Source: Suillus spraguei (lineage: Eukaryota > Basidiomycota > Agaricomycetes > Boletales > Suillaceae). Taken from it: a stretch of DNA of 64,000 bases. This document shows, piece by piece, positions 14,646 to 54,041 of the stretch. The position numbers and the translations under genes are program-made. Each line of letters opens with the position of its first letter. The stretch's first letter is position 1. Where the stretch lies: assembly GCA_016800925.1 (NCBI GenBank), contig JABCPU010000003.1, positions 646,891-710,890 of the forward strand, read 5' to 3'. A model generated the notes under the pieces. That model was not told the DNA's origin, made no database searches, and saw nothing but the letters and a program-made list of their open reading frames with translations.

Positions 14646-16365
14646 TGTTAAGACCATACTCAAAGGGTAAGAGATCTGAAGGGCTTTGGCCTCAGTTCAT
14701 ACACTGTGCCCCTTTCCTGAGTAATGCCCCTTATTTCAGAGGAAAGATATATGTCAGAAGGTCTGGAAGTGGTTGCATGATGGATCCGGTGAAACAAAGA
14801 AACTAGCGCTGGCCTAAGTATAAGCACAGCGATAATCCTACTGAAGGTGCGGGTGAGATGTTCGCCCCAAGAGGACTGCAATAGAAGCAATTCCTTCTAA
14901 GTTAGTGCAAAGGAAACAAGGAAGTACTAATAAGGCAATGAGAATTCCAACTTCCGAGGTTAGTGGTGGTAGCGGTATATTGGCAGTACTAGTGCGATGT
15001 CAGCGGTACACGCGCGGTAAGGATAGCTGCAATGGTTAGCTAGCAAGAACAAGAACGAAGTTACTTGAGCGAGACGAATATATTATTACTACTGGCGGTG
15101 CGGTAGCGGTAGCGGCAACTCTGTATGAGTGGGAATGCAGGTGAGAGAGAAAGTGACCCAGCAAGATCACTGGCCGCAGTCCAGTTATGAGTAGCAAGTC
15201 AAAAGTTGCGCGGTACTTCGAGCGGTAAAGTTACTGGCGGTTAAATCTAAGAGCGATGTTCGAACGGAGGAGAGTTCAAAAGCAAATGGATTGCAACTAG
15301 CGAGCGTTTCAGATACTAAGTCCTAGTAAAGGGATGTAATGGGAAGTAAAAGTAATGGTATGTATGTTGAGTCCTTTTTAACATATGTGAGCACGTATGA
15401 GATGATTATGCAAGTCCGGTAGTGAGAAGGAAAATAAACAGGGTATTTAATAAAGAGGTGCACAGCGTGCAGTGGCCCCTTGAGATGTAAGGTAAATCCT
15501 GCCATAGGTTTAGTAACCACAGAAGCGAAGTAACTACGCACCAATGGATTCTAGACGGAATTGGATGGGACATGAGGGCATCGGCGCAAGGATCCGGTAA
15601 GGGTTCATGGGAGAAGAATGGTTCCACCTTAGCGGAGCAAAAAGGCTATTTCCTCACTATAAGGGAAATTCTTCGGTTGCCACCGCAGATGCTAACAAGA
15701 CGCTTGTTGAAAACGGGGTTTTGACGGTCAGTGTGACTTTTCTCGCTACACTGGACATCCGAAGATATCGGATACAACATGTCTGAAGGTTATCCGGAAC
15801 GTAGGGATGGAACAAGGAATAAGCTAGTCTTGAAATGAGTTTCTGACTAGAAACTAACGGAGGTAGACTACCTGAGGGTAGAGTCGGAGATATAGACTAT
15901 AGGAATCAATCCTAAGTCTTGGAAGATGACTAGAGTTGGAAGTAACTCAAGTCCGGAGGAACAGAATGAGCAGAATCTAAGATGATATTTGAACTAAGGT
16001 TCTATGGAGATTTACAAGTGGTTTATATACTGTAAGTAACTGGCAGGGATAATTAACAAGTCCAGGACTGAGGGCTATGTACGATGTATAATGAAAGTCT
16101 ATTAGTAAATGCACAGTGGATCAATAAGCACGAGTCAGAAATGAGACATAAGTAATGGATCAATAAGCAGGACAGAAATATACATAGCTGGAATACTGGA
16201 GACAAGAGGATTGCCAAAAGGAGGTAGACACAGATGTCCACAAGGGAGTTAGGGTGCGAGAAGTGAAAATTTCAGATGGGTGATCCAGATAAGATCTGTG
16301 GACCAGATGGAAGCAGGATTGATCAGATCTGATCAGGCCTGAGATCAGATGTATGGAATATGACA
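14646..16365 (-). repeat. LTR family A solo LTR, split by a family-C LTR
   Basis: The copy starts TGTTAAGACC and ends ATATGACA on the plus strand. It is flanked by a perfect 5-bp duplication, CCACC (14641-14645 and 16366-16370), so it is a true solo LTR. Its left part (14646-14789) and right part (from about 15755) are collinear with other family-A LTRs; the material between is a family-C LTR with its own duplication. Without that insert its length is about 755 bp, as expected for the family. Confidence 0.9.
14790..15750 (-). repeat. LTR family C, nested inside a family-A LTR
   Basis: The unit is 961 bp, starts TGAAACAAAG and ends CTCGCTACA. The reverse complement of the same unit lies at 34675-35626. 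The flanks are CCGG (14786-14789) and CTGG (15751-15754), a 4-bp target duplication that differs by one C-to-T change at the CG. It carries no coding sequence of note. The TG...CA ends and lack of an interior make a solo LTR the most likely identity. Confidence 0.85.
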
Positions 16366-20474: not shown

Positions 20475-21015
20475 TGTAATGAACATATTGGCACTGGCCT
20501 TAAAACCCTATCTTTTGGTGCATGTCTCATGTCTATAGGAATCTCCACCAGTCCAAAGGCCATCTTACTCCTTTAGCTTTGCCGGCAGCATTCCACACTT
20601 ACTGCACACCGTACCAACTGCTGCACCACGTTCCACGTACCGATGTCCTTCCATGTCCTTGCTGTGTCCGCATAGCTCCATTTGGTGCATAGCTTGTTGT
20701 ATGTTTGTTATCACTGATTCCACGGCAAACCTTATTACATGTTGCCTCGTGCTGCAGCCGCCTTGCGCTACATTTACATACGGCGGTTACTGTACTTGAG
20801 CACTACTGATCTTGCCTAGAGCATTCTGAGTACATACAATTTAGGATATAAGCACCGTGTACCCTGCACGATACAGTACCTGATTTGTACCCCATTGAAT
20901 GTACTATAGGTCAAGATTAGTGTCAAGCTCTGGATCTACCCAGTAGTAGACTTAGTCTTTAAAGTTCTTTACCGCTTGTTAATCAATTTTGCTCATTCAC
21001 CGTTACTGCTGGCAC
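20475..21015 (+). repeat. LTR family B, 3'-truncated copy
   Basis: It starts TGTAATGAACATATTGGCAC, preceded by CCGC, and follows the family-B LTR for about 540 bases (GGATATAAGCACCGTGTACC and CCCAGTAGTAGACTTAG are landmarks). It breaks off after CACACTGCTTGTTAC. The preceding CCGC fits the CG-containing 4-bp target seen for other family-B copies, but the right flank is lost. Confidence 0.8.
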
Positions 21016-23925: not shown

Positions 23926-26900
23926 TCAAGCAATGGGACCAGGCTTGTCCGGATATGCAGAATGGAAATCCGCTACGAGATCCGATGCATTTCCGAGTTC
24001 TGTGGCCAGTAACCAGGAAGTTTCTTCGTCCGTTCCTTCGTATCCGGACCAACGGACGAGGTATAGAAGTTGGCAGTGGTGCCTACGACGGTCCAGTTTA
24101 GAGTCCAGGATTTCGGATATCTCGTACTCTGGTTCTCCATCGACTTCGACTGGTGGCGGAGGAGGTTGGATGCGATTGGGAATGGTGTTCGGAACTGCTG
24201 GCTCTAACTGCGAGACATGGAAAACAGGATGTACGGAACGCATAGAATCCGGAAGTCGGATGGCGAAAGAATGAGTACCCGGGCGGGATATAATTTCGAA
24301 TGGTCCCAAATTCTTTTCCGAAAGTTTCTTCGACGGACGAGTGGAACGGAAGTACTTGGCTTTGACGAAGACTTGTTCTCCAATCCGGAAGTCTGGAGCA
24401 GGCTGTCTTTTAGCGTCCGCGGGTCCTTGATAGCGTTTCTGAGCTTCGGACATCTCATCTCGGAGGAACTGGTGAAGTTTGTTAAGATCTAGGGCATATT
24501 CCTGGGCACGGATGGAGGATAGGTCGTGTTCCGGATGGATGGAAATGTTCGGATGATAACCTTTATTGGCGAAGAAAGGTGAAACTCCGGTAGTGGCACT
24601 CGGAGCGTTATTGTATGCAAACTCTGCGAGGGGCAGTAGCTCGGACCAGTTGTCCTGCTGATAGTTGCAGTAGATCCGGAGGTACTGTTCCAGCGTTTGG
24701 TTGGCACGTTCGGTTTGTCCGTCTCCTTCAGGATGATATCCGGATGTGAAGTGTAGGACCATGTCCAATGCCTTTCCTAGGGAACGGAAGAAGTGGGATA
24801 CGAACTCTGTTCCTCGATCCGAGGTTACATGGGATGGGACTCCATGCTTAGAGAAGACATGGAGGAGAAATAGGCGGGCGAGATCAGGGGAAGTAATGGT
24901 ATCGTGGGTCGGGATGAATATGGCTTGCTTGGATAGACGATCTATGATGACGAGGATGGCTGTAAAGCCGGATGAGTCCGGAAGTTGTTCAATGAAATCC
25001 ATAGAGATGGAATTCCATGGTTTTTCTGGGATGGGAAGTTGCTTGAGTAGACCGTAGGGCTTATGTCTCGGAACTTTGGCTCGGGCGCAGGATGTGCAGG
25101 ATCTGACATACTCTTTGACAAAGGCTCGTACTCCGGGCCAGGTATAGTTGCGTCGGATGAGCTCGAGAGTACGATTCTGTCCGAAATGTCCGGATAGGGG
25201 GTGGTCATGGCAATTCCAGAGGATGCGAAGTCGTAGATCATTGGTATCCGGAACGTAGATGCGGTTGTCACAACAAAGGAGTCCACCATCATCTATTGTC
25301 CATCTCGGATCCGAAGGAACCGGAAAATGTGTTTGTGCAACGGGGTCATTAGGGAGTGCTATCAGAATGTCTTTCCGGAGGTGTTCGGTGTCCATAAGAA
25401 CAGCTGCTCTAAGGACCGGAGTTGCTAGAATGGAAGCTCGTAGGGACGAAGCTAATTGTTCCGAAGCAAATATTGGACGGAGGTTGTGAGGGTTAATCTG
25501 AGCGTAGGCCTTATCCCCCTCTTTAGGGTAGACGTCCCATCGTCTAGTGAGGGAATCTGGCTTGACTCCGAGTCTTCCAGGACGGTAACGGATAACGAGG
25601 TTGAACTGATGGAGGAACTCGGACCAGCGGGCCTGACGACGGGATAGCAGTTTGGTGGTAGAGAAATACTCAAGGTTCTTGTGGTCCGTGACAACATCTA
25701 TAGGCTCGGACGAGCCTTCTAGGTAATGGCGCCAGGTTCGGAACGCAGCATAGATGGCTAGTAGTTCCTTATCATGGACATCATAGTTGAGTTCTGCACC
25801 GGACAGCGTCTGGGAGTAAAATGCCACCGGACGAAGTTCCGAGTCTGGGCACACAATGGATAGTATTCCAGCGATAGCATAATCCGAGGCATCAGTTTCC
25901 ACAACTATAGGAACATTCGGAATCCAATGCGTTAGCACCGGAGCGGACGTGAATGCTTTCTTGAGTGTGTTAAATGATTTCCGGCATTCCTCGGAGAAGT
26001 CCCAAGTGATGCCCTTGCGAGTGAGTCGAGTAAGGGGAACCACGATATCCGAGTAGTTGAAGATGAAACGACGATAGAAGTTAGCGAATCCGAGGAAAGA
26101 TTGGATGTCCTTGACTTTCCGAGGTTCTGGCCAGTCTATGATAGACTGGATCTTTTCGGACGACATTGTCAAGCCATCCGGAGATAGGAGGTAACCAAGA
26201 TATTCGACGGAGGATGAGTGAAATTCGCATTTCTTGGGTTTGGCATATAGTCGGTGTTTACAGAGACGTCGCAAAACTTCTCGGACATGTTCCTTATGAC
26301 TTGCAAGGTCTTGGGAATAGATAAGGATGTCATCCAGATATACAACAACACATACGTCCAGCATATCGGAAAATACGCTATTGACAAAGCGCTGGAAAGC
26401 TGCCGGAGCATTCGTGAGGCCTTCCGGCATCACCAACCATTCATAGGAGCCATAGCGCGTACGGAAGGAAGTCTTCCACTCATCTCCTTCTGTTATCCGG
26501 ACGAGGTGATATGCAGATCGGAGATCAATTTTGGTATAAACTTTAGCGTGGCTCGGGGAGTCTAGTAGGTCGGCAATGAGGGGTAACGGATATCGGTCCT
26601 TCTTGGTGATGTGGTTAAGGCCGCGGAAATCCACACAAAGGCGGAGGGATCCATCCTTCTTTTTGACAAATAGGACGGGGGCTCCGTGGGGAGAAGATGA
26701 GGAACGGAGGAGTCCGGACGAGATGTTTTCATCAAGGAACTTCCGGAGGGCCTCAAGCTCTACCGGAGAAAGAGAGTATATGGTTCCGAGGGGCGGACTA
26801 GCCCCTTCTTCCAACTCAATCTTGAGATCGTAGGGTCGATGTGGGGGAAGTTGTCCGGCTTTGCCTTTGTCGAAGACATCCGCGAATTCGTGGTAATCGG

Positions 26901-27660
26901 AAGGGATTCTGGAGAGGTCTGGAGGATCGGATGATACGGATGCGGATCGAAGGTTTACTTCGGAGGGACGGAGGTAGATGCTGAACTGAGTAGATCCTTC
27001 TAACTTGCAGGCACGGCAAAAGGCCACTGCGTTTATCAACGATATGTTAGGGACTGGAGTACCAGTGGAGGGTTCGGATTTGGTCAGAGGCGGAGCCTCT
27101 GCCACGGATGGGGTGCTCTGAGGCGACGGAGATATTGGAGGGGAGGAATCTTCCTTGGGTGGAATACCCGAAGGTAACAGAGGTGTCGGGTTGGATTTTC
27201 CTGCCATGGACGGTGTGTCCGGAGGCAGCGGTGATGCGGATGGGGTTAATGGCTCTCCCTGTTCAGTAGTTCGGAACTCGATGCTGCCCAATACCCAGTC
27301 AATCAACGGATTGTGTCGGGTGAGCCAGCTATATCCGAGAACGATATAACATGAGGAATCCAAAGGGGTGACGTAGAACGTGTCGGAAGTGATTACACCG
27401 GAGGAGAATCGGACGGATAAGTTTATGGCCTCGACAATATTGTTATTGCATGTACCATCAAATAAACGGAGTGGAAGCGGAGGAATCTGATAGGTAGGAA
27501 TTTTATGTTCTCGGACGAAATCAGTGTCTATGAAGCAGTGGGAGGAACCACAGTCTATGAGGGCCGGAAAGTCAGATATATTGGAGAAAGATGGAAGAGA
27601 GACATATGGACACAGAGAGTTCGGATCAGGAAGAGTTACAGCGTTGAGTCGTAGTTCCAT
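23926..27660 (-). CDS. pol: Chromovirus A Pol polyprotein (PR-RT-RNase H-IN-chromodomain)
   Basis: The open frame of 1244 codons reads, in order: a retropepsin-like site with ALIDCGSSHCFID (about residue 36); reverse transcriptase with VVVYLDDILIYS (about residue 440); RNase H with ETDASDYAIAG (about 588); and integrase. The integrase has an H-H-C-C zinc domain (HPLSGHFGQNRTLELI...CTSCARAK, about 815-860), the first Asp in SMDFIEQLPDSSG (about 890), the second in VTSDRGTEFVSHFF, and Glu in GDGQTERANQTLEQYL. The C-terminal chromodomain is EYEISEILDSK...LVRWSGYEGTDEETSW (about 1178-1230). It lies 57 bases downstream of the gag stop and in a different frame, so it may need frameshifting or reinitiation. 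No damage is visible, so it is probably active. Confidence 0.95.
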   Translation of the reverse strand: MELRLNAVTLPDPNSLCPYVSLPSFSNISDFPALIDCGSSHCFIDTDFVREHKIPTYQIPPLPLRLFDGTCNNNIVEAINLSVRFSSGVITSDTFYVTPLDSSCYIVLGYSWLTRHNPLIDWVLGSIEFRTTEQGEPLTPSASPLPPDTPSMAGKSNPTPLLPSGIPPKEDSSPPISPSPQSTPSVAEAPPLTKSEPSTGTPVPNISLINAVAFCRACKLEGSTQFSIYLRPSEVNLRSASVSSDPPDLSRIPSDYHEFADVFDKGKAGQLPPHRPYDLKIELEEGASPPLGTIYSLSPVELEALRKFLDENISSGLLRSSSSPHGAPVLFVKKKDGSLRLCVDFRGLNHITKKDRYPLPLIADLLDSPSHAKVYTKIDLRSAYHLVRITEGDEWKTSFRTRYGSYEWLVMPEGLTNAPAAFQRFVNSVFSDMLDVCVVVYLDDILIYSQDLASHKEHVREVLRRLCKHRLYAKPKKCEFHSSSVEYLGYLLSPDGLTMSSEKIQSIIDWPEPRKVKDIQSFLGFANFYRRFIFNYSDIVVPLTRLTRKGITWDFSEECRKSFNTLKKAFTSAPVLTHWIPNVPIVVETDASDYAIAGILSIVCPDSELRPVAFYSQTLSGAELNYDVHDKELLAIYAAFRTWRHYLEGSSEPIDVVTDHKNLEYFSTTKLLSRRQARWSEFLHQFNLVIRYRPGRLGVKPDSLTRRWDVYPKEGDKAYAQINPHNLRPIFASEQLASSLRASILATPVLRAAVLMDTEHLRKDILIALPNDPVAQTHFPVPSDPRWTIDDGGLLCCDNRIYVPDTNDLRLRILWNCHDHPLSGHFGQNRTLELIRRNYTWPGVRAFVKEYVRSCTSCARAKVPRHKPYGLLKQLPIPEKPWNSISMDFIEQLPDSSGFTAILVIIDRLSKQAIFIPTHDTITSPDLARLFLLHVFSKHGVPSHVTSDRGTEFVSHFFRSLGKALDMVLHFTSGYHPEGDGQTERANQTLEQYLRIYCNYQQDNWSELLPLAEFAYNNAPSATTGVSPFFANKGYHPNISIHPEHDLSSIRAQEYALDLNKLHQFLRDEMSEAQKRYQGPADAKRQPAPDFRIGEQVFVKAKYFRSTRPSKKLSEKNLGPFEIISRPGTHSFAIRLPDSMRSVHPVFHVSQLEPAVPNTIPNRIQPPPPPVEVDGEPEYEISEILDSKLDRRRHHCQLLYLVRWSGYEGTDEETSWLLATELGNASDLVADFHSAYPDKPGPIA

Positions 27661-27716
27661 TGCACGGGTTGGGCCAACGCGACCCTCATCCCGTACGGAG
27701 TCAGGAGGGTCGCGGA

Positions 27717-29009
27717 CTAATTTTTTGCCTCATCCGAGGCTTCCGGTTCCGTTTCCGGAGTGAGCACAGTGGCGCGGCCTTTGGCAGCGCGCGAAGTGGA
27801 TTTGGTGCATTCCCGGGCAGTGTGACCAGGTCTGCCGCAGAACATACAGAGCTTTTTGTCAAAACGTCTCTGACGCTCCTGGGTGGTTAGCTTTCCGTCT
27901 GTACCAACAACACTAGGGAGATCCGAAACTTTCGGGGTAGAGGATGTTGTGGAGTATGTGGGTTTATTGAATCTGGGCATATCGGATCCGGATGAGTTGG
28001 AGTTCGTCCGGTCGGATGTTGACTGCCTGGGAGGATTGGAAGAGGTGGTTCTACTCTCTCGGGTGACTTCGCCCCTCCGTTCCCAGTAACGGGCGTCGAT
28101 GGTCTGGGCGAGAGTCTTGAACTCCGAAAGGGTAGTGGGCTTACCCATGCGACTAATCTCATCTTTGATTCGAGCCGGAAGTCCATTGTAGAATTGGCGT
28201 CGTAGGGCTCCGTCTCCCCATTCACGTACTTGGGAGGCAAGTCGCTGGAATTCTACAACGTACTTGTTGATGTGTTGTCCGTCACGCATGTGGAGTTGTT
28301 CTAACTGCATCTCTGCATCTCCAGAGGGATCATGTGGTCCGAAATTGGTTTGGAGCTCGAGCATGAACTCGGAGTAGTCATCCATCCAGTCCGGACGGTC
28401 GCTATATCCGTCCGAAAGGAGGTCCAGTTCAAACCACTCGAGAGCCATACCCTTAAGGTAGGATTGGGCGAAATTGACTTTAGCGCGTCCGGAACGGAAA
28501 GCGCTAGGTTTGCTCTGGAAGTTGAGCTCACATTGGACGAAGAATGCCCGGAGCTTGCGAGGTTCGGACCCATCGAAGGTATCTGGCTCACGGACTTTGA
28601 CTTTGCTATCATCCGAGGTGGGGGTGCGACGGCTACTGCGAGTGAGGTGGTTAATGGCTACGGACAGTTGGGCTAGGACCCGGTCCTGAGGGTTTAGGTG
28701 GATTTTATCTTCTTCGTCCTCCAGGTCCTCGTTGTCCGGATCATCAACTTCATCATCTGGTAGGTTACTGCGCAGCTCATCATCAAAGCGAATGGTCGGG
28801 CGCGAATTGGAGTCTGGGTTATCCGGGTTCCGAGTTGGTGTTATCGGATCCGGTCTGACTTGACGGGTGGAGATACTTTGACCTATGTCGCTCATGCTTG
28901 CGTGGCGTTGAGAGAAACTGGTAAATGTTTGGACGATGGGTGTGGGATCTCGTTGGATCGGACCAAGTCCGGCTCCTCGGAGTGTGTTCTGAGCTTTACG
29001 GGGAGGCAT
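27717..29009 (-). CDS. gag: Chromovirus A Gag polyprotein
   Basis: The 430-residue open frame starts MPPRKAQNTLRGAGL, 51 bases inside the 5' LTR. It has a retrotransposon-gag region (ALEWFELDLL, INKYVVEFQRLASQVREWGD) and one CCHC zinc knuckle, CMFCGRPGHTARECTK, near residue 390. A Ser/Arg/Asn-rich linker precedes the knuckle. It forms the virus-like particle and packages RNA. The frame is intact. Confidence 0.95.
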   Translation of the reverse strand: MPPRKAQNTLRGAGLGPIQRDPTPIVQTFTSFSQRHASMSDIGQSISTRQVRPDPITPTRNPDNPDSNSRPTIRFDDELRSNLPDDEVDDPDNEDLEDEEDKIHLNPQDRVLAQLSVAINHLTRSSRRTPTSDDSKVKVREPDTFDGSEPRKLRAFFVQCELNFQSKPSAFRSGRAKVNFAQSYLKGMALEWFELDLLSDGYSDRPDWMDDYSEFMLELQTNFGPHDPSGDAEMQLEQLHMRDGQHINKYVVEFQRLASQVREWGDGALRRQFYNGLPARIKDEISRMGKPTTLSEFKTLAQTIDARYWERRGEVTRESRTTSSNPPRQSTSDRTNSNSSGSDMPRFNKPTYSTTSSTPKVSDLPSVVGTDGKLTTQERQRRFDKKLCMFCGRPGHTARECTKSTSRAAKGRATVLTPETEPEASDEAKN

Positions 29010-29059
29010 GATATGGGATGGTTGCTAAGTTACTCGGAAAGGTTTGAGTTCGAATATAC
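29010..29059 (-). promoter_or_regulatory. Leader and presumed primer-binding region of chromovirus A
   Basis: On the minus strand the 5' LTR ends TTAACA and continues GTATATTCGAACTCAAACC before the gag ATG. The usual TGG that pairs with a tRNA CCA end is absent. The TTCGAA core instead resembles a tRNA T-loop. The priming mode is therefore uncertain. Confidence 0.4.
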
Positions 29060-29828
29060 TGTTAAGACTGTACTCAAGGGTAGAGAGATCCGAAGGGCTT
29101 TGGCCTCAGTTCGTACACTGTGCCCCTTTCTCGAGTAATGCCCTTTATTTCAGGGAGGAGTTATTCGTCCGAAGACCCGGAAGGGGTTGCGTGACGGATC
29201 CGGGTGTCTGAAGGTGTCGGATACAATACGTCCGAAGGTAATTCGGAACGTAAGGAGAGGAAAGAGATTAAGGCTAGTTTCGGAACGAGTTCCTAACTAG
29301 AAACTAACGGAGATGGACTATCCAAAGATAGAGTCGGAGGTATGGACTATAGGAGTCAATCCTAAGTCTCGGAGGGTGACTTAAAGCGGAGAGTGGCTTA
29401 AGTCCGGAGGAGGCAGAATGAGTAGAATCTAAGATGATATTCGAACTAAGGTTCTACGGAGATCTACAAGTGGTTTATATACAGTAAGTATCTAAGACGG
29501 ATAATCAGCAAGTCCGGGACCGAGGGCTATGTACGAAGTGTAACGGAAGTCTATTAGTTATTGCACAGCGGATCAGTAAGCATGAATCGGAAATGAACAC
29601 AGGAAACGGATCAGTAACACAGGACGGAAATATAAACAGCCGGAGTACCGGTAGTAGGAGAAATGACGAAAGGAGATAGACGCAGATGTTCACCAGGGAG
29701 TTAAGGTGCGAGAAGTGAGTACATTCGGATGGGTGGTCCGGACAGGATCTGTGGACCGGACGGATATGGAAACGATCGGATCTGGACGGATATGATCGGA
29801 TCTGAGATTGGAAGTATGGTATATGACA
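29060..29828 (-). repeat. 5' LTR of chromovirus A
   Basis: It is 769 bp and nearly identical to the 3' LTR at 21890-22658 (three differences seen). It should hold the promoter for gag-pol. Confidence 0.95.
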
Positions 29829-30571: not shown

Positions 30572-31461
30572 ATACTTAGTCTTTTTCTTTTCTCCTGTAC
30601 TTGAACCATAGTTTGTACCATACTCTGTAACATTGGTTGTGAAGGTTAAAATATCCCTCACCTAAGATTATAATCAGACATTTATGGTAGTATAAAATAA
30701 ATATTCTAGGAGATAGAATAAGTTTATGTGGCTATTGGCCATGTTTATAGATGCTGTGTGAGTATCAGCATATATAGGCATCATCACTGCTTTTCAATTT
30801 GTTTTCATCTCTTTGAATAACAAAGCTTTGAGCCAACTAAGCAGGGGGTTCCACAATCACCACTTTATCATTCTCATCCATGTTCTCTCATGTCCTGCGT
30901 GAACAATTCCTAGCTGGTATTGCTATGTTCCTGAGTTGCCTCTCCTCTTTTGTTCTTTTATCTCTGGCAGGGGATTCCACAATCACCACCTTATCATCCT
31001 CATCTATGACTCTCTCATTTCCTATATATGCCCTCTTGGTGGGGGGTTCCACAATCTCTACCTCATCATTGTCTTTAGTCCACTGCTTTTCTAAGATGAG
31101 CAGTGCAATTATTCTCTTGTATGACTCATACCACACCTTCAAGATGACCTCATCTTTCAAGCATATTCTTCTGATAGCTTCATCTCCCTCCTCTGCTTCC
31201 TACTCTATCTCTCTACTGGAGTCATTAGTGGGTTGACTGAACTGTGAGACTGCATTTATTATATAGTATTTTTATAAATTGGTTAGGTATAAAACATGGT
31301 TTTGTTACCCCTAAGGCTCTCAAAACAAGTTGATATACATATAGTTAGCAAATTTAACATACAATAAACATAATGAAACAATAATAAATACCATAAATAT
31401 GACATAATAACAATAATAATATACTCAATTATATACTTGGTACACAAACTTTATGCTACGT
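30572..31461. other. AT-rich stretch with one minus-strand acidic repeat frame
   Basis: Minus-strand frames between about 30840 and 31230 encode an acidic/basic protein fragment with a repeated phrase: DEDDKVVIVESPARDKR, DNDEVEIVEPPTKRA and, beyond a stop, DENDKVVIVEPPA. The only clean open piece is 30888-31160 (90 codons). It could be another decayed accessory gene. The rest is AT-rich with no recognisable gene. Confidence 0.35.
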
Positions 31462-32127
31462 TGTAAAGATACAACCTAACCTGGGCTGTAGGTAAACTAC
31501 CTCCTAAGTTAGTATGTGTGGTCTTGCACTCTGTCTAGTCTGCTTCACTTGTCAAACAAGAGCGTTCAACCCTAAAGGGGGATGCCTGTTAGTATAGTCA
31601 AGTTCGAGTCAAACCAATTGTGCGAATATAGTGTCGTAGTCAGTGGTAAGTTGCCATGGTCAGCAATAATGCCGCCGGGACTAGCATCATATGTAGCAGT
31701 GCTACCATGGTAGAGATAATGCTTGTGAACATAGCGTCGAGTGAGCAATAATGAGCGATAAAGTCAGCAGTAGTGGTAAGGTGCGAGTGGTGCAAAGAAA
31801 CAGTAAAGAAGTCTGCTGTACTCTCAGCAGTAGTGTAGCGGTGAGTGTGAAGTTCAGTCAAAATAGGGGTCAAGGATCTAGCAGTGTGCCAGCAGTAACA
31901 GTGAACAAGCGATGTTGATTAATGAGTGGTAAGGAACTTTAAAGACTAAGTCCACTACTGGGTAGATCCAGAGCTAGACACTAATCCTGACCTATAGTAC
32001 ACTGAAAATAAAGTGCTGTATCGTGCGGGGTATGCGGTGCTTATATCCTAAATCATATGTACTTGGAATGCGTTAGGCGAAATCAGTAGCACTCAAGTAC
32101 AGTAACCGCCAGATGTAAACGTAGCGA

Positions 32128-33496
32128 TGTAAAGATACAATCTAGCCTGGGCTGTAGATGAACCACGGCCTAAACTAGTATGCGAGTCTTGTGCTCCGTC
32201 TAGTCTGCTTCACTTGCAAAGCAAGAGCGTTTGACCCTAAAGGGAATGCTAAGTTAATATAGTTCAATAATGCCCAACCTGTAGTGCAAGACTGCCATCA
32301 GAGGTAGCGAGATGCTAGCGGTGACCTCTGCTCTGTGGGAAAGTAGTGGTAGAGCGCAGGAAGATAGCGGTAAAGTAGCGGTAGTGTGAGCGGTAAAACT
32401 GCGGTAGTGCGTGCGGTAAAACTGCGGTAAGGCGTGAGAAACTGGTGTCAAAATATGGGGTTTTAAGCCCAGCACCAATATGTTCATTACAGCGGTTACT
32501 ACACTCCAGCGCTACTGATCTCACCTAGAGTATTCTGAGTACATATGAATTAGGATATAAGCACCACGTACCCCACACGATAAAGCACCTGATTTTACAC
32601 CATTGCACATACTATAGGTCAGGATTATTGTCTAGCTCTGGATCAACCCAGTAGTGGACATAGTCTTTAAAGTTCCCTTATCACTCATTAATACATCACG
32701 CTCGTTCTCCATTACTGCCGGCATACCGCTGGACTTTTGATTGTTACTTTTGACTGAACTTCTCATGCTCCGCTACTTTACCACTGAAAGTACTGCGGAC
32801 TTCTTTACTGTTTCTTTGCACCGCTCGCACCTTACCGCTACCACGGAGACCACTGCTCGACATCGCTCGCTAGATGCAACTGTTACTGACTTTATCTTGA
32901 TGACGGTAGCACCGCAAAGCACGACACTAGTTCCGGTGGTATCATCGCTGACCGTGGCAGCTTACCGCTGACTCGGACGCTCGTTTCACAAATAAGTTGG
33001 ACTCGAACTTGACCATACTAAATAGGCATCCCCCTTTAGGGTCGAACGCTCTTGTTCTTACAAGTGAAGCAGACTAGACGGAGCGCAAGACTAACATACT
33101 AGTTTAGGCAGTGGTTTATCTACAGCCCAGGCTAGGTTGCATCTTTACAACGGCTGGAATACATAGTGAGAATGGTAGCGAGATAGAGATATTTAGCTAA
33201 GAGGCACGCAGCGAGCAAGCGGTGTCATGGAAGGTAAGGTAAGTCTTGCCATAGCTTTAGTAACGGCGAAACAAATATGCTACGCACCACTGGATCTTAG
33301 ACGGAAATGGAATGCACAGGAGGACATCTGTAGTGAGATTCGGTAAGGGGCAAGGATCCACAGAGCGAAAATGGTACTGGTGAAGCGAAAAGGGGTAATG
33401 CTCGCTATAGGGGTTTTCTTGGTAGCTGCTTTAGGCAGTAATGAGACACTTGTCCAAAATGGCACTTTCATGGTCAGCGTGACTGTGTTCACTACA
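32128..33496. repeat. Composite insert of family-B and family-C pieces, flanked by GCGA
   Basis: The insert is bounded by GCGA on both sides (32124-32127 and 33497-33500). It contains a shortened minus-strand family-B unit (32128-32491), the 3' two-thirds of a plus-strand family-B LTR (32492-33149, followed by ACGG), and the end of a diverged minus-strand family-C LTR (33150-33496, ending TTCACTACA). The internal junctions do not look like simple insertions, so recombination has happened here. Confidence 0.6.
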
Positions 33497-33678
33497 GCGA
33501 GGCAGCTGCGGCATGAGGCAACATGTAATAAGGCTTGCTGTGGAATCAGTGATAAATGGTCATGTATAAAATATGCACCAAATGGAGCTATGCAGACATG
33601 GCAAGGACATGGAAGGACGTCGGTATGTGGAACATAGTGCAGCAGTCGGTACAGTGTGCGGTAAGTGTGGGATGCCGC

Positions 33679-34645
33679 TGTAACGAACATATTGGCGCTG
33701 GCCTTAAAACCCTATCTTTTGACACTTGTCTCACATCTATAGGAGTTACCACTTGTCCATGGCTGTCTTACCCCTTTAGCATTACCAGCGGCATCCCATG
33801 CTTACCACACACCATACCGACTGCCGCACCTCATTCCACGTACCAATGTCCTCCCATGTCCTTGCTGCGTCCGCATAGCTCCATGTGGTGCGTCGTTTGT
33901 TTTATGTTCGTTATCACTGATTCCACAGCAAGTCTTATTACATGTGGCCTCGTGCCACAGCGCCTTGCGCTATGTTTACATACAGCGTTACTATACTCGA
34001 GTGCTACTGATCTTGCCTAGAGTATTCCAAATACATATGATTTAGGATATAAGCACCGTGTACCCCGCATGATACAGTACCTGATTTTACCCCATTGCAC
34101 GTACTATAGGTCAGGATTATTGTCTAGCTCTGGATCTACCCAGTAGTAGACATAGTCTTAAAGTTCCTTATTGCTTGTTCATTGATCATGCTTGTTCATT
34201 GATCATGCTTGTTCTCTGTTACCGCTGGCATACCGCTGGACTTTTGATTGTTATTTTGACTGAACTTCTCATGCACCGCTGCTTTACTGCTGAAAGTACC
34301 GCGGCCTTCATTACTCTTTCTTTGCACTGCTCGCAATCTTACCGCTACCGCTGATACCATCGCTCGCTCGACGCCACTGTTACTGACTATATCTCAACCA
34401 CAGTAGCACCACTACATACAACGCTAGTTCCGGCGGCATCATCGCTGACTGTGGCAACTTACTGCTGACTATGATGCTTCATTCGCACAAAAGTTTGACT
34501 TGAACTTGACCCTACTAATAGGCATCCCCCTTTAGGGTTGAACACTCTTGTTTTCACAAGTGAAGCAGACTAGACGGAGCACAAGACTCACATACTAACT
34601 TAGGAGGTAGTTTATCTACAGCCCAGGTTAGGTTGTATCTTTACA
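33679..34645 (+). repeat. LTR family B, full-length solo copy
   Basis: The copy is 967 bp, TGTAACGAACATATTGGCGC to GGTTGTATCTTTACA. The flanks CCGC (33675-33678) and CCAC (34646-34649) are a 4-bp duplication with CG changed to CA on one side. It sits inverted inside the older family-B copy. Confidence 0.9.
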
Positions 34646-34674
34646 CCACTGGCAATGCTAAAGGGGTAAGACGG

Positions 34675-35626
34675 TGTAGTGAGAAAAGTCACGCTGACCG
34701 TCAAAACCCCGTTTTCAACAAGCATCTCATTAACGTCTGCGGCGGCAACTGAAGGATTTCCTTATAGCGACGAAATAGCCTTTTCGCTCCACTAAGGCAG
34801 AACCATCCTTCTCCTGTGAACCCTTACCGGATCCTCGTGCCAATGCCCTCATGTCCCGTCCTATTCCTATTCCATCTAGAATCCATTGGTGCATAGTTAC
34901 CTCGCTTCCGCCGTTACTAAACCTACGGCAGGATTTACCTTACATCTCAAGGGGCCGCTGCACGCTGTGCACCTCATAATTAAGTACCCTGTTTATTTTC
35001 TTTCTCGCTACTGGACTCGCATAGCTATCTCGTATGCGCTCACATATGTTAAAAAGGATTGAACATACATACCATTACTGTTACTTCCCGTTACATCCCT
35101 TCACTAGGACTTAGTATCTGAAACGCTCGCTAGTCACAATCTATTTGCATTTGAACTCTTCTCCGTTCAAACTTCGCTCATTGTTTTAACCGCCGGTAAC
35201 TTTACCACTCGAAGTACTGCCCGAATTTCAAGTTCACTACTCGTAACCAGACTGCGGCCAGTGATCTCGCTGGGTCGTTTTCTCTCTCATCTGCATTCCC
35301 GCTCATACGGAAGTTGCCGCTACCACCACCACACCGCCGGTAGATATAACATTTTTGTCTCGCCCAAGTAAATTTGTTCTTGCTCTCGCTAGCTAACTAT
35401 TGCAGCTATCATTACCGCGCATGTACCGCTGACACCACGCTAGTACCGCCGCTAACCTTGGAAATCGGAATCCTCGTTGCCATATTAGTACTTCATTGTT
35501 TCCTTTGCACTAACTTAGAAGGAATTGCTTCTATTTGCAGTCCTCTTGGGTTGAACATCTCACTCGCACCTTTAGTAGGATTAACGCTGTGCTTATACTT
35601 AGGCCAGCGCTAGTTTCTTTGTTTCA
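34675..35626 (+). repeat. LTR family C, full-length solo copy
   Basis: The copy is 952 bp, TGTAGTGAGAAAAGTCACGC to TTCTTTGTTTCA. It is flanked by a perfect ACGG duplication (34671-34674 and 35627-35630). It is the reverse complement of the copy at 14790-15750. Confidence 0.9.
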
Positions 35627-35715
35627 ACGGCCTTTGGACTGGTGGAGATTCCTATAGACATGAGACATGTGCTAAAAGATGGGGTTTTGAGGCCAGCGCC
35701 GATATGTTCATTACA

Positions 35716-38700
35716 ATGTAGTCTATTTTACTTGACTTAATATAATCACACTGTGAGTATATGTGTTTCAATATAGCATGCATTCACAATAGTTGTAAAA
35801 GTAGCAGTGTCATGTGAAGGCATTATTTTTATAGTGATATATATGATGATAATATATAAAGTATAGTCTAGATATACATACATAATTCTGCCCTTGCAAC
35901 AGATGTAAAAGCATCATAAAATACATATTGTAGCATATAAATCAAAGGGTTCTAATATCAGACCTATCTACAAATTATAAACAAATTTGTTTTTAAGCTT
36001 ATCAGTTAGGCAGACCTTAAGTCTGACATGTGACTTGATCATGTATATTGTAACTAAATTGTGGAAATTGGGTTAATATGCAATGTATTCAGATTATGAA
36101 ACAAATTCTCTATGTTTTTGCTGAAATTACTTTGAATTTAATCAATAGAATTGGATCCTTATGCATATTTGTGACTTTATTTAGAGACTGTTTATCATTT
36201 GCATAATAGACAGCTGAGTTGAAATGTGCATGATTTTTCTCAGGATATGCATTATATTTGTTTATGGGACTTTTCTAGTTGTGTCTCAGTTGTAAGCAGC
36301 TTTAGGAGAATTATGTGCAACTTGAAACATCATCAGAGAAAAGGCGCTGCAACAGGGATTGAGTCTGGCTCACAAATAAAAACATAAATATATGTTAAAG
36401 AATTCATTAGAAGCTACATCTGCAGTTGACTGCAGATGGGACTACAAAGTCAGGCTCAGTGGATGCATATTCTTTTCTTGGTGAATAGTGAAATAAATCA
36501 ACTCATGCATGAAATAAAAACTGACAAATAAGGATGCAATACATTGTAAACATGGAGATATGATTAAATACATACAAGAGGGAAGATAATATCACAATAA
36601 ATAGACCTAAAGATGACAGTCAGCACAGATACCACATATGAATGCTTCTGTTGTCTCCTTCATTTATGGTTCTGGTTTTACTAGTCTGTACAGAAGCAAG
36701 ATGTCCTCTAGGCATAAGACAATGACTTGCTGATCACTGTTATATACAGAAAAGTAAGAGTGAATTACTATAAGACAAAAAAAATCTCTAGTCAACTGCA
36801 GATGGTTATCAAATCTACCAGCAAGGTAAATTTAAATATAAAATACAACACTGTTAAGGACATGGAATATACATACAGCATATTTGTTGCATCTTTGATT
36901 TTTTACTTCTTGAAGTCAGTATAAGGTCCATATGAGAACATGACATGAATAAGCAATAAAGGTATCTGACTGAGGCAGTTAGCAAGAAACATGATATGAT
37001 GCTCATACCATAGTGCATGGATGTGAACCGAGTATGACTGTGCTTCTCACTTAGAAGAAGACTGTTGTTGGCAATGTCTATATTTTCAATGTTGGTAACA
37101 GAACTAAAGTCCAACTATAACTCAGTTAACTGACCATTACCAATGGCCATTATTGAGCCTGTGGGATCAAAACCAAGTTTTCCAAATTTCGGATGGAACT
37201 TACAACATTAAAGATATAAGTTAAGGGTCAAGGAAAAATTATGGTTGGCAAGAGTCTCAGGTAGAAAGGCCTATACTCCATTTTTGCCAGAGATGATAAG
37301 AATGAAATTAAGAAAGTGCTTTGAACCTTGCCATAACAGTATTGGATTATCACTATATAACTTGAGATTTGGATGGAGAATGAGTTTGACATGAAAATAG
37401 AGAAACAGGATGGCAGAGAAGCCATGATTGACATGAAATATTCTCTTGACACTAGAGAGGTTGATAGGGTGCTGACTGGTGTGTGCTCTTAGATAGGATT
37501 ATTGATAGGGGTACATTCCTGGTGTAAGAACAATTCATTAAATATAGCTTCCCAAGGAACAGCATTATCCAGATCAAAGTCATCATCAGATCTGAATGAT
37601 AAGTTAAAAATGAAGACAGGAGCGACACGGAGGAGGAGAAAAACTTACAAAGTATCATTGTATGTATGTTACATTGAGATATACAAATAGAGAGGCAAGG
37701 AAAAGGGACAGAACTAGTGATGTTCTTATGCAATACAATGTACCATATAATACCATCTATTATAAGAAAATACTGGGAATATGGAAGGAGTAGTAATACC
37801 TGGAGTCTTTCCTCATAAACCTACAAGGATGCAATTTATATATTGTCCAAGAGTTTATGAACATGATTAAGGGAGATAGGACAAAGAGTATGGAGCTTAT
37901 AATAAGGGCTTGTAAGACTATTGGAGTTAACAAAGGCTTACCAGTCTATTCCCTAGAAGAGACGGTAGACAGAAAAAAACCCATTGGGTGCATTAGAATA
38001 CTGAATTTTTCATAGGTGTAATCTAATTTATATCCTCTTAGAAACAATAAATATACCCTAAGAAGCAAGGCAAAAAGGTAAGGTAGGAAGTTAGATATCA
38101 GATAGAGAAGGTGATTTTGCAATAGAGGATTTTGCAATGATGCTCATATGAGGGAATCATTAGGTATTGGAAGGAATGGTGCTTGATTAATGAGCCAATG
38201 CCTAATGTGATATTGACATTAAGCAACATTTGTAAAGAGAAGATGGGCTAAGAATCAATCATACAGTGTCTAATGCTTATGTAGAAGGACCTGTGACACT
38301 ATAGCTTGATACAAGAGCTAAAGATATTGAAGGTTATATCTATTACAAAATTATAATGTTGGTAAGTTAAATAATTGTACTCTGATGATGAGCCATGATC
38401 AGGAGAGCATGCTATGAGGAAATGAATTAGTCAAGGGTGGTAATATATTCAAATGGAGACTTATAATAATGCCATTTTGGAGGGTTGTGAGTCTGATGAT
38501 ACATGGACCACTAGTATCCTCCTCAAAATCATAGTAAGCAATGTTGGCAAGTTGAATGATTAGGAGAACATGAGCAACTACAATAAGGGGAAATTGCATA
38601 GTTCCACTGAGACAAACAATAGTCCCTATAGGACTATAGTCCAGGAGAAATTGGTTGATAAGAAGAATGATATGTGTAGAAGGATGATACATGTCAAGTA

Positions 38701-39149
38701 GGTGAGATGAAATTCTAGTATGATGATTTGATATGGAGAAATTTGAAAGTATAATGACTGGTATCAATGGTCTTTTCTTTTCTTTTGGAGAGAGGGATAG
38801 GGTTGGGATTGTAGGAAATTTAATCTCTATATAAGGTGATACTATACATATGCAATATAGACTAGTATTCATTCTATTGTTGCTGTTATACACAAATTCT
38901 AAACATATGGTACTCAAATATGTTAATGGTGAAAAGCCTATAGGAAGACAATCTACTGACTAACCATAAGGCAAAGTAGCTCCTAGATTCTTGAATTCAC
39001 CATCAAAACATTTGAAGAACCATCTTTGTAGCTTATTTATAATAAGATCCAGTTGTAATTTGAGATCAAGATAGTCACCTATATGCAAGTTAGTCTGCAT
39101 AATCAAAGTTAAACTAATGTTATAACCAATCAAAGGCAAATTTTTTGTC
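35716..39149. other. AT-rich tract with decayed coding segments
   Basis: The base composition is clearly more AT-rich than in the host-gene block, and no intact gene is visible. Plus-strand phrases still look protein-coding: ENEFDMKIEKQDGREAMIDM (about 37370-37440), RACKTIGVNKGLPVYSLEET (about 37905-37965) and YRTIVQEKLVDKKNDMCRRM (about 38625-38690). A 172-codon minus-strand frame at 38399-38917 is probably the antisense shadow of such a relic. I do not recognise the families. Confidence 0.45.
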
Positions 39150-39180
39150 ATGAAAATTGATTACGAGTCCACCACCCGTT

Positions 39181-39363
39181 GTGCCTTCGGCACAGGAAGC
39201 AAAGGAGTGCTTCGCACTCCTTTTGCTCCCTGGCCTTGGCTTCATCCTAATAATTCTGTTTGCCTTCCTGGCCTTGGCTTCATCCCAATAATTCACTTTT
39301 GCCGCCAAAAAGAGTGCTTCGCACTCTTTTTGGCTTTCTGGCCTTGGCTTCATCCTAATAATC
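39181..39363 (-). repeat. Helitron 3' region: three stem-loops among three direct repeats
   Basis: The stem-loops are 39181-39193 (GTGCC-TTCG-GGCAC type), 39201-39223 (AAAGGAGTGC/GCACTCCTTT around TTC) and 39307-39331 (AAAAAGAGTGC/GCACTCTTTTT). The phrase CTGGCCTTGGCTTCATCC followed by AATAAT occurs at 39230, 39268 and 39338. A hairpin close to the 3' end is the normal Helitron termination signal; here it is repeated. Confidence 0.7.
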
Positions 39364-39535
39364 ACTACTTCGTGCACCTTAACTTATTCGCAATCATAGT
39401 GGATTTTAAAACAGACATGTACATTTTGAGCAGCATCTCAAGAAAACTACAACTAAAATCTACTGCACCATCTAAAAGTGCACTATACATCACATCACTC
39501 AGTCCTCTATATAAAAGTATATCAATATACATCAA

Positions 39536-42500
39536 TCAATCTTCAACCTCCATATCATTTCTATCTCTAAGTCCTCTCAGCACTTCTGTATACACCACAT
39601 TGGTCGTCTTTGACCCTTCTTCATGCTCCGGAAAGATGGCACGCACTCTCTCTGGGTGAGTGCAGCGAGACAAAGCCACATACAGCTGTCCATGACTGAA
39701 CACGGGAGTCCATAAATCCAGCCCAACCCACTTCACACTTTGACCTTGAGCCTTGTTGATTGTCATAGCAAACGCAAGACGAACGGGGAATTGGCGACAC
39801 TTGAAAGGGATAGGGTTGTCTTCAGATGTGGCATCCAGCGTCATGCGGGGGATTAGGACAGTGTTCTGATCATCTTGATGAGCTTCATCAACTCCATCTC
39901 TAAGAATACGACACCTGAGGACGCGCGTGGTCCAAGACAGGAGGATCATCCTAGTTCCATTATAGAGGCCATTGGTGGGGTCCAAGTTGCGCAACGACAT
40001 GAGAGAAACACCCACTTTGAGTTCCAATTTGTGCAAAGGGAACCCTGATGGTGTGAGAGTATGAAGGTACTCTGGTGGGATATAGTTGTAGTCCTTCTCA
40101 GTGATTGAGTCTGCGCTGGTGAAGACTGCTTTATCTCCAGGGAATGATTCAAGAATGTTGGCATTGATTTCGTCCACATCAGTGTTCTTTGTGGAGTGGA
40201 TGGTACGTTCCAGGAAGAAGGAATCATTCACAGGAGGATGCCCAGGGAGCAGAATAGGAGAGTATAGGGCATTGATGAGAGAGCGGATATCATTGTCAGG
40301 GCAGTGCATATGAATCAGAAGGGCGACCGTTCCATCTGCATGTGTGCCCTTCCCAGCTCCAATCTCAAGAAGCCACTTTGCAAATTCATCAGAGGCGGGG
40401 TCTTGGCCAAGCCGCATATTTGTCTTTAGGTGGAAGATGCGAAGCTTTGGCCAGATGCAAGATCTGCAAAATGTAGCGCCCACTATCTGCTCCCTGGATC
40501 CATGAGGCACCACCGGCAGGGTCTGTCTGAAGTCTCCTCCAAAGAGCATCATCATTCGTCCAAAATCAGCATCGACGTTCAGAAGGTCGCGCAATGAGCG
40601 ATCAAGGCATTCCAGGATGTGACGGTGTAGCATAGGAATTTCATCACAGATGATGAGGGAGGTGGCCTTGAGAAGCTCATGCATGACATCTCCTTTCTTG
40701 ATGTTGCAGGAGCTGTCCTCATTGATGGGAATTGGAATTTTGAATCGAGAATGAGCCGTGCATCCACCTGGCAGGAGGAGAGAAGCGATTCCAGAGGAAG
40801 CCACACATAGGACAATCTTGCCTTCAGCACGGAGCTTTGAAGCAATGAGCTTGCAGAGATATGTCTTTCCACATCCACCTGCACTGTGGACAAAGTATGA
40901 ATGTCCAGGTCTTTGTTCATTACGTTGCATGGCATCATCGACCACTGCATCAAAGACTGTCCTCTGCTCCTGATTAAGAGAAAGCACTCCTGGGTTCACC
41001 ATCTGCTGGAGCTCCTCCTGGTTATATTGGAGCTGCTCGGCAATGAGCTGATTTCCCTGCTGTCATGAATTCCAAATACAAATCATTACTCTTTCCTCAA
41101 TTTCCCTAAAGCGTCTAAACCCAGCGCTAAGACAAACACAAACTCCATTGAAATCCCTATAACTGCTTCTATAACCGAACTTCCTGATGAAGATGAAGAG
41201 ATCTTTTATGATGCTATCGGATAAGATAAGATAAGATAGTGTCACGTGATCTTAGAACCTTCTAGAATATGATGTCATAACAATGTCACAATCATCACAT
41301 CGTACGATCCTCATTTCTATTTTATGATTGGCTAGTAGTTTCAAACTCAGTTTATATCTCAGTTTCAATACGTGTATATAGTTAGCTAGTTTCGCTGTAG
41401 TAGTTCTTTAGTTCAAACCTCTTGTATCTACACTTGTAGCAATCCAAGACGTCCTTGCTCTTCTCTTTCTCTGTGATAACCTTAGTTTGAGTCCTAGTCT
41501 CTGCCCTAGCGTTAATTCGTTTTGTGGGTTGTGACACCTGCATGGCCCCCCATCTTGCTGCCATTTGAGGTACAGGCATCTGAGGGATCACTTGCAAAGA
41601 CTTTCCATTTTGCGGAGCATGCCATCAATGAGATAGAGACCATAGTCATGAACCTCTTCATCTGTAGGGTCGGGGATGCTGAATGGGACGTGTGATAGGC
41701 GGTGGCGCAGATCATCGCAGAGATTCTCCTTGAAGTGGTTCCAAAGATCACTGGGGTCTGTAGGGTTGCAGTGTATGAGGATGATGGCAAAGAGGTTGCA
41801 CATGCCATGTCCAGTGCTCATATGAGAGGCGTCCTGCAAGCACTGGATCCATTCATTATCATCCTCAAGCAGACCCCTGCGCCGACATGCCTCCTTAAAA
41901 GTGTCGCATAAAACACCGTCAACTGTCTGAAGGTTCTCATAGGAGGTGGCCCCTTGAAGACATGGTAAGTTTTATTCATAAAAATTGACGTCAGGACCAT
42001 ACCTTTTACTACAGTCAAAAGCAATCTCATGTAGAAGCGCTCTCCGGAGCTGGGTGCAGCAGAGTACATCCTTCCAATCGCTATTCCGCGTTGGTGTATC
42101 TTCCACGCCGTCTTGTTCCATACGAATCTTGAGGGGAAGTCCTGGTAGAGGTGGTCGTGGGCTCCAGCAGCCACCAAGACATTATTGGAGTTAGCCTTGA
42201 ACCATCCAGTGAGGCAAGTCTCCTTGGTTGCTGCGTGCTCAAGAACATCCTGTGCATTATCCTCAGGATCATAAAACACCATGTGTTCATCTGGGAGGTG
42301 GACCGGCAAGCAATAGACAGAGGGCCATTGAAGGTGCATTCCAAACTCAAAGATGTGCCATGTGGCCTCAGTGGAGCTGATGTATCTGGAGTCAAGATAG
42401 GTTTTGACCTCATCCACCAGTCCTGTCATCTCCAAAGTGGCACGGTCATTTCCCTTGTAGATGTACTTGTGGATGTATTTGACCGACTTGATAGAAGCAC

Positions 42501-53071: not shown

Positions 53072-54041
53072 TGTGATAACCATGTTCATGCTGACCTTGA
53101 AACTCTGACTTTTGACACATGTCTCATTGCCTATAGATGCAGCCATCACATCTCTATGGCCATCTTACCCCTTTTGTACTTCCCAGCGGCATCACATGCT
53201 TACCACATACTGTACCGACTTACCAGTCCACATTCCATGAGCCGATGTCCATCCATGTCCTTGCCTTGTCCATCTAGAGCCATTTAGTGCATAGTTTATA
53301 TATGTTTGCCTATCACTGATCCTACTGCAAGCCTTATTACATGTTGCCTCATGCCATAGCTACCTGCAGTGTTATTACATACTGGTAGTGACCTCACATA
53401 CTTGCTACTGATCTTGTCTAAGTATTCCAGTTACATATGATCTAGGATAAAAAGACTTGACAGCCTGCACATATTCTTTATCTTCGTGTCACTGACCTTA
53501 GTGTCACCATTGAGTATTTATTTTTTGGTTAGGCTTACTATTAGCTCTGGAACCATCTAGCAGTGGAAGTAGTCTCTTGTTATTGCTACTGTTCTTTTAC
53601 TACTACCGCTTGCTTACAGCTGCCATTGTGCAATTGACCTCTATTTAACTTAAATTCTGACTGACCACAACTTTACTGCTGAAAGTACTACAGTTGACTT
53701 TATTGTTTCTTCTTCACCACTTGTACTGGACTGCTATGAGCAATGCTACTGCTCATCACTGCTGACCATCACTACTTACAGGCATTGTTATTATCACTGC
53801 TATTACCACTACTAATTACACTACAACAGGCGGCACCATCGCTGACTGCGGCAACTTACCACTGACTGCAGCACTACCATTGCACTTTGGTTTTGGCATT
53901 AGCTTAACTATACTAACAGGCATCTCCCTTTAGGGTTGAAAGTTCTTACCTTGCAAGTGAAGCAGATTAGGTAGAGTGCAAGACTCACATACTAACTTAG
54001 GTTATGGTTTACTATAGCTCAGATTAGGTTGTGTCTTGACA
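53072..54041 (+). repeat. LTR family B, old diverged solo copy
   Basis: The copy is 970 bp, TGTGATAACCATGTTCATGC to GGTTGTGTCTTGACA. The flanks GCGG (53068-53071) and GTGG (54042-54045) are a 4-bp duplication with one C-to-T change. Its own sequence is strongly decayed toward TG/CA. Confidence 0.85.

What the first reader, a model, noticed from the sequence alone, without database searches (positions are those of the whole stretch)
31458..35719. LTR families B and C insert at CG: every 4-bp target duplication has the form NCGN
For each copy with two readable borders the flanking 4-mers are: CCGG/CTGG (14790-15750), ACGT/ATGT (31462-35715), GCGA/GCGA (32128-33496), CCGC/CCAC (33679-34645), ACGG/ACGG (34675-35626) and GCGG/GTGG (53072-54041). 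One-sided borders agree (CCGC before 20475, ACGG after 33149). In all cases CG is in the middle, or was before a C-to-T or G-to-A change on one side. Families A and D in the same window give 5-bp duplications without this rule. A CG-centred integration target would be a notable specificity, perhaps linked to CpG methylation or to the integrase itself. The sample is six sites.
Basis: seen in the sequence. Interest (0 to 1): 0.75.

Follow-up and report, generated by a model that had tools for sequence, protein, structure and literature searches.

The report
Jumping elements that insert at CG
A large group of copy-and-paste DNA elements in a mushroom genome inserts almost only where a C is followed by a G, a sharp target rule known before mainly from a related class of cut-and-paste elements.

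Summary
A pattern for B/C-type LTR 5' ends matches 1944 places in this 86-Mb genome. 109 are preceded by RGA, the purine end seen before 3' LTRs. Of the other 1835, the flanking 4-mer is centred on CG in 889, TG in 453, CA in 467, TA in 5 and anything else in 21. Control family A has 0 CG of 52. In 47 copies with both borders the centres are CG/CG 9, one side changed 24, both changed 14, as expected if insertions began as CG/CG and each side decayed independently (with look-alike copies merged 9:20:14). CpG columns inside the LTRs show a similar CG:TG:CA:TA mix. Empty-site relatives carry CG, TG or CA in 446 of 469 alignments. Family C is a Ty3/gypsy element whose relatives end in a chromodomain; B is probably non-autonomous and shares its primer-binding site. 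Best reading: a symmetric integrase complex makes a 4-bp stagger around CpG, and CpG decay later blurs the record. Closest known: Ginger1 DNA transposons (gypsy-like integrase, CCGG/CCGT duplications) and Drosophila ZAM (CGCGCg). New variant of a known kind.

The parts
31458..31461 (.). target duplication ACGT of the outer B copy
31462..35715 (-). outer family B LTR, split by the three nested insertions listed below
   Evidence: blastn segments to B on the minus strand: 35715-35635, 33680-33497, 32126-31462
35716..35719 (.). ATGT, second copy of the duplication, CG changed to TG
32124..32127 (.). target duplication GCGA
32128..33496 (-). third LTR type (my label E): 5' end C-like, 3' end B-like, with B fragments nested inside
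33497..33500 (.). target duplication GCGA
32479..33149 (+). B fragment with a 3' end, followed by ACGG at 33150-33153
33675..33678 (.). target duplication CCGC
33679..34645 (+). family B solo LTR, 967 bp; used as the B query
34646..34649 (.). CCAC, duplication with CG changed to CA
34671..34674 (.). target duplication ACGG
34675..35626 (+). family C solo LTR, 952 bp; used as the C query
35627..35630 (.). target duplication ACGG
14790..15750 (-). family C solo LTR; flanks CCGG (14786-14789) and CTGG (15751-15754)
20475..20999 (+). family B 5' fragment preceded by CCGC (20471-20474)
53072..54041 (+). diverged B-like LTR (about 74% identity); flanks GCGG and GTGG

Best explanation
B, C and related copies are LTRs of Ty3/gypsy-type elements of a basidiomycete. 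Their integrase joins the element ends across a 4-bp stagger whose two central bases must be CG; the outer bases are only biased (C or A first, G last). Because the integrase complex is two-fold symmetric, one G-specific contact per half would give CpG. Each insertion therefore leaves two CpG copies, one on each side. These later decay one by one to TpG or CpA, as methylated CpG does, and then largely stop, since the changed site is no longer a CpG. Shown: the CG-type rule, the 4-bp duplication, a pair table that fits independent decay, and a Ty3/gypsy pol in family C. Inferred: that the integrase itself reads CG, that methylation drives the decay, and that B is moved by C-like enzymes.
For: Genome-wide counts 889 CG, 453 TG, 467 CA, 5 TA, 109 RGA, 21 other, of 1944. 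Control family A 0 CG of 52 (Fisher p 4e-14). Outer bases of the two 4-mers agree in 43 and 44 of 47 pairs; 0 of 47 agree over 5 bp. Pair table 9:24:14 observed, 9.4:23.2:14.4 expected under independence; with look-alike copies merged, 9:20:14 of 43 against 8.4:21.2:13.4. Five pairs are TG on one side and CA on the other, which points to an original CG. CpG columns inside LTRs: CG .51 TG .23 CA .24 TA .001 (C, 43 copies, 87 columns) and .39/.29/.30/.003 (B, 19 copies, 61 columns); targets: CG 43, TG 21, CA 25 of 90 sides (C) and 37, 18, 27 of 83 (B). TG and CA are about equal genome-wide. Empty-site relatives of 28 of 48 insertions show CG, TG or CA in 446 of 469 alignments. Symmetric side preferences: C at -3 or G at +6 in 14 of 173, T at 0 or A at +3 in 33 of 346. 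A C copy at C880 has gag, RT, RNase H and H2C2 matches (the integrase-core match is weak, 18 bits, below the Pfam cut-off) and aligns at 65% to P0003 through its SH3_Tf2-1 and chromodomain region. The genome has DNA cytosine methylase matches.
Against: Decay of the target did not follow decay of the LTR across copies (Spearman -0.05, p 0.59, 108 sides). In the least decayed quarter the target kept CG in 11 of 27 sides against 60% in the LTRs (p 0.05). Doubly changed pairs lean to concordance (9 against 5, p 0.42), so up to 22% of insertions could have started at TG or CA (best estimate 6.5%). The LTR CpG columns were chosen partly on their CG/TG/CA content. One of 28 insertions with empty-site relatives has mostly gaps at the target. 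No methylation data and no test of the enzyme. The two sides of one insertion are not independent counts.
Confidence: 0.83

Rival explanations
1. The rule is only the general liking of 4-bp-stagger integrases for a flexible pyrimidine-purine step at the centre (CG, TG, CA and TA alike).
For: Nearly all centres are YR; retroviruses with 4-bp duplications also prefer YR (PMC4422553, section 6 read).
Against: TA is 5 of 1835 although it is 7.0% of flank dinucleotides; the retroviral effect is a 63% rise over 22%, not near-absolute.
Confidence: 0.03
2. CG, TG and CA are all accepted at insertion (TA is not), so much of the TG/CA is original rather than decay.
For: 9 of 14 doubly changed pairs are concordant; in the least decayed quarter of copies the target keeps CG less often than the LTR does (11 of 27 against 60%).
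Against: The pair table fits independence; 5 of 14 are TG/CA; the fitted share of TG/CA insertions is 6.5%, upper limit 22%; LTR CpG columns show a similar mix.
Confidence: 0.14
3. Specificity comes from the methyl mark or from a host protein on methylated DNA (the chromodomain may bring the complex to silent chromatin), not from base reading by the integrase.
For: C relatives carry a chromodomain; insertions sit in CpG-depleted DNA (flank CpG o/e 0.47 against 0.98 in window 1-12000).
Against: A chromodomain or reader protein would hardly fix the exact base register; the CG lies midway between the two joining points. Family A also has a chromodomain match (23.4 bits, below the 25.1 cut-off) and no CG rule.
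Confidence: 0.2
4. Artefact of nesting: insertions sit in CG-bearing repeats such as CCGC motifs of older LTR copies.
For: 28 of 48 paired insertions have a relative of their target in the held DNA, in part other LTRs.
Against: The other 20 of 48 have none in the held DNA, and 20 of 20 obey the rule on both sides; only 61 of 967 (B) and 87 of 952 (C) LTR columns are CpG type by the rule, so random nesting would give under 10%.
Confidence: 0.02

Closest known systems
Ginger1 DNA transposons (PMC2836005; passages and section 5 read)
   Same: Gypsy-type integrase with H2C2, DDE and GPY/F; TGTNR ends; 4-bp duplications CCGG (75%) or CCGT/ACGG (24%), that is, CG-centred with C or A first.
   Different: DNA transposons with terminal inverted repeats, found in four animal species; OTU or Ulp1 domains. 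Here LTR elements in a mushroom, with broader outer bases: CCGC 34, CCGG 28, ACGG 22 of 119 insertions, strands folded.
ZAM of Drosophila (PMC2527525; abstract and introduction read)
   Same: Retrovirus-like LTR element whose integrase targets a CG-rich sequence, CGCGCg, and binds and nicks it in vitro.
   Different: Longer site; element with env. No CpG-decay signature appears in the parts I read.
Chromoviruses with 4-bp duplications in plants (Galadriel, Phygy, Bryco; PMC6911290, passages read)
   Same: 4-bp duplications are the commonest in these families; pooled 4-bp sites have a GC-rich central dinucleotide and a palindromic logo. That the three are chromoviruses is recalled.
   Different: Described as a base-composition bias over pooled families, not a near-absolute CG rule; 5 bp is the usual length in most families there.
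Retroviruses with 4-bp duplications (PFV, MLV; PMC4422553, passages and section 6 read)
   Same: Symmetric site, YR centre, T at 0 and A at +3 disfavoured; PFV Ala188 contacts bases 3 upstream of the joining points, where a side preference is seen here too.
   Different: Much weaker central preference.

Membership tests
Ty3/gypsy LTR retrotransposon (Metaviridae), family C | LTRs with TG...CA ends, primer-binding site after the 5' LTR, gag, then RT-RNase H-integrase | tested here: met
   (one copy, at C880; frames broken; its 3' LTR was not fetched; integrase-core match weak)
Chromovirus, family C | GPY/F (SH3_Tf2-1) and chromodomain at the integrase C-terminus | tested here: met
   tblastn of P0003 (PF24626, PF00385) residues 44-732 at 65% in L029; no domain scan of that stretch of the copy itself
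Chromovirus, family C | 5-bp target duplication, the usual length in most families | tested here: not met
   4 bp; 0 of 47 pairs agree over 5 bp. 4 bp is commonest in some plant families
Ty3/gypsy, family B | own gag-pol | tested here: inconclusive
   one B copy (L030): 3 of its 5 open frames of 120 aa or more scanned, 0 of 3 with a Pfam match; other B copies not searched
Ginger1 DNA transposon | terminal inverted repeats, no LTRs | tested here: not met
   LTRs flank an internal region with primer-binding site
Ginger1 DNA transposon | CG-centred 4-bp duplication, CCGG or CCGT | tested here: inconclusive
   CG centre met, outer bases broader: CCGC commonest, 34 of 119
Ginger1 DNA transposon | YPYY motif; OTU or Ulp1 domain | not tested
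   no search was made for YPYY; no OTU or Ulp1 (PF02338, PF02902) appears in the Pfam columns
ZAM-like | CGCGCg target | tested here: not met
   bases outside NCGN are nearly unbiased

The most novel reading that the evidence does not exclude
A retrotransposon integrase that requires CpG at the centre of its target, perhaps reading the methylated form, so that each insertion plants a matched pair of CpGs at its borders. The pair then serves as a built-in record of CpG decay, copy by copy, and marks a lineage of gypsy integrases that shares CG reading with Ginger1 transposons.
Probability: 0.3. Interest if true: 0.8.

Novelty: new variant of a known kind. Interest (0 to 1): 0.6.

Why it matters
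Retroviral and retrotransposon integrases mostly have weak local sequence preference; near-absolute rules are rare and help to find what part of the enzyme reads DNA. With more than 1800 sites in one genome and another chromodomain family (A) lacking the rule, the determinant could be mapped by comparison. The matched CpG pair left at each insertion is also a natural experiment on CpG decay in a fungus: same start, same time, same neighbourhood.

Tried and rejected
Age test: decay of LTR CpGs did not predict decay of the target CpG; the quarters of copies keep CG at the target in 11, 15, 12 and 9 of 27 sides against .60.52.45 and .34 in the LTRs. Kept as a null result with little power. TIR element idea: the look of the ends first suggested a DNA transposon; primer-binding site, gag and pol rule it out. 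General YR rule: TA 5 of 1835. Nesting artefact. RIP-like TCG hypermutation as the sole cause of decay (described in Microbotryum, PMC5381629, passages read): changed sites occur after A, C and G as well as T. Structure prediction was not run: without DNA in the model it would not show what reads the central pair.

Rows dropped: one search took 48 pairs of 900-1000 bp and dropped one (L048, shifted by a base). Ends with a 3'-LTR or 5'-LTR inner border were set aside by fixed prefixes (9 and 6). Ends not starting TGTA, TATA or TGTG, not ending CA, or too near a locus end were dropped. L026 and L027 look like one duplicated cluster, and L044 and L048 like one insertion; merging such look-alikes gives 43 pairs. 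Genome-wide counts are not de-duplicated and miss copies with mismatches in the pattern. The 109 RGA places were not checked one by one. The family A control uses exact matches to 21 bases, so mostly younger copies, and its 5-bp duplication has another centre.
Full report
Setting. The window lies in an 86.2-Mb assembly of 1256 contigs. A CDC14-like protein at 225-935 is 83% identical to one of Suillus luteus over 97% of its length, so the host is most likely a boletoid mushroom, an ectomycorrhizal group (lifestyle recalled). CpG observed/expected is 0.98 in window 1-12000, 0.29 at 36000-41000 and 0.47 in the flanks of the insertions, and the genome has six partial DNA cytosine methylase matches on four contigs. 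CpG decay of silenced repeats is therefore expected, but methylation was not measured.

The observation. In 31458-35719 an old family B LTR on the minus strand carries three further insertions, each with its own 4-bp duplication centred on CG or its changed form: a third LTR type (32128-33496), a B LTR (33679-34645) and a C LTR (34675-35626).

What the families are. The sense direction of both queries is the plus strand: the 5' LTR is followed by A(T/C)TGGAGCCCACTG, shared by B and C. A C copy at C880 has a Ty3-type gag, reverse transcriptase, RNase H and H2C2 zinc finger in separate open pieces, with an integrase-core match of 18 bits, below the Pfam cut-off of 32.6. It aligns at 65% over residues 44-732 to P0003, a relative with an SH3_Tf2-1 domain and a chromodomain. 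For P0003, Ty3 is the best match among solved structures. In the one B copy examined, which is interrupted by a C insertion, about 2 kb of internal DNA remain and 0 of 3 open frames scanned have a Pfam match; I infer it is non-autonomous.

Genome-wide test. A pattern covering the B, C and third-type 5' ends matches 1944 places; its reversed control matches none. The second and third bases of the flanking 4-mer are CG in 889, TG in 453 (29), CA in 467 (30) and TA in 5 (31). Another 109 carry RGA, the purine end seen before 3' LTRs (67); 21 remain. Among the 1835 without RGA, 98.6% are CG, TG or CA; counting the RGA places as misses, 93.1% of 1944. Family A's LTR end, as control, has 52 matches and 0 with CG at the same offset.

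Both borders. In 47 copies with both borders the first and last bases of the two 4-mers agree in 43 and 44, which establishes the 4-bp duplication. The centres are CG/CG 9, CG with a changed partner 24, both changed 14. If each side kept CG with the same probability, 9.4, 23.2 and 14.4 are expected. Merging look-alike copies gives 9, 20 and 14 of 43, expected 8.4, 21.2 and 13.4. Of the 14, 9 are concordant and 5 are TG on one side and CA on the other; a model with a share of insertions straight into TG or CA gives 6.5% (0 to 22%). Inside the LTRs, CpG columns show a similar mixture with almost no TA, though these columns were picked by a rule that favours such a mixture. The scarcity of TA is what methyl-CpG deamination predicts, since after one change the site is no longer CpG; it also speaks against a plain flexible-step rule. 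Against the reading, target decay did not follow LTR decay across copies, and the least decayed quarter kept CG in 11 of 27 sides where 60% was expected (p 0.05).

Before insertion. For 28 of 48 paired insertions the joined flanks match other held DNA lacking the insertion; the target reads CG 164, TG 164, CA 118, TA 1, other or gap 22, of 469 alignments. For one of the 28 most alignments have a gap there. The relatives themselves decay, and many alignments repeat the same family, so this is supporting, not independent, evidence. Of the 20 insertions without a relative in the held DNA, 20 obey the rule on both sides.

Site shape. Outside the central pair the preferences are weak and symmetric: C at the first or G at the last position 178 of 346; T or A there 33 of 346; C at -3 or G at +6 14 of 173 (both sides of one insertion counted, so its p-values are overstated). 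Retroviruses with 4-bp duplications also disfavour T at 0 and A at +3, and PFV Ala188 contacts bases three upstream of the joining points (PMC4422553). This looks like an ordinary integrase complex with one added strict requirement at the centre. The residue after the SDRG motif is proline in the C copy and threonine in family A; that this position corresponds to PFV Ala188 is recalled from the motif and was not tested. Proline there is found in 90% or more of 35 relatives, whose targets are unknown, so it need not explain the rule.

Known or new. The papers held contain a strong precedent: Ginger1 DNA transposons, with a gypsy-type integrase, duplicate CCGG or CCGT/ACGG (PMC2836005), and Drosophila ZAM targets CGCGCg (PMC2527525). 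Plant 4-bp duplications have GC-rich centres (PMC6911290, passages). Other Drosophila gypsy families also leave 4 bp but prefer AT-rich sites (PMC3276498, passages and section 12). Cryptococcus TCN3, another basidiomycete gypsy element, gives 5-bp duplications of variable sequence (PMC12810828, passages). Among the titles and abstract openings listed by the ten searches I saw none that announces a CG-centred rule in a fungal LTR element; the lists are capped and most subscription papers are not held. I file it as a new variant of a known kind.

Noticed in passing
window 21890-29828 (-): Family A Ty3/gypsy element with long open gag (430 aa) and pol (1244 aa) frames, LTRs 99.6% identical, CpG not depleted (o/e 0.99): probably recent.
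   Followed up: partly
window 39536-44208 (-): PIF1-like helicase and Helitron N-terminal domains in separate frames, remains of a Helitron; 36000-41000 is strongly CpG-depleted (o/e 0.29).
   Followed up: no
window 32128-33496; many places: A third LTR type with a C-like 5' end and a B-like 3' end follows the same CG rule (7 of 7 held 5' ends CG, TG or CA); it may be a recombinant of B and C LTRs.
   Followed up: partly
window 32330-32440 and other B/C LTR parts: Dense GCGGTA / TACCGC motifs inside the LTRs, perhaps regulatory repeats and themselves a rich source of CG targets.
   Followed up: no
L029 7169-8101: A 933-bp stretch inside the C copy that is its own reverse complement at 84%, with part of it repeated at L029 65-536.
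   Followed up: no
L026 and L027 (C1036, C979): C and B LTRs arranged as large inverted mirror pairs, probably one duplicated nested cluster.
   Followed up: partly
L029 1286-2056 (-): An open frame of about 255 aa downstream of the integrase in the C copy, with no Pfam match.
   Followed up: no
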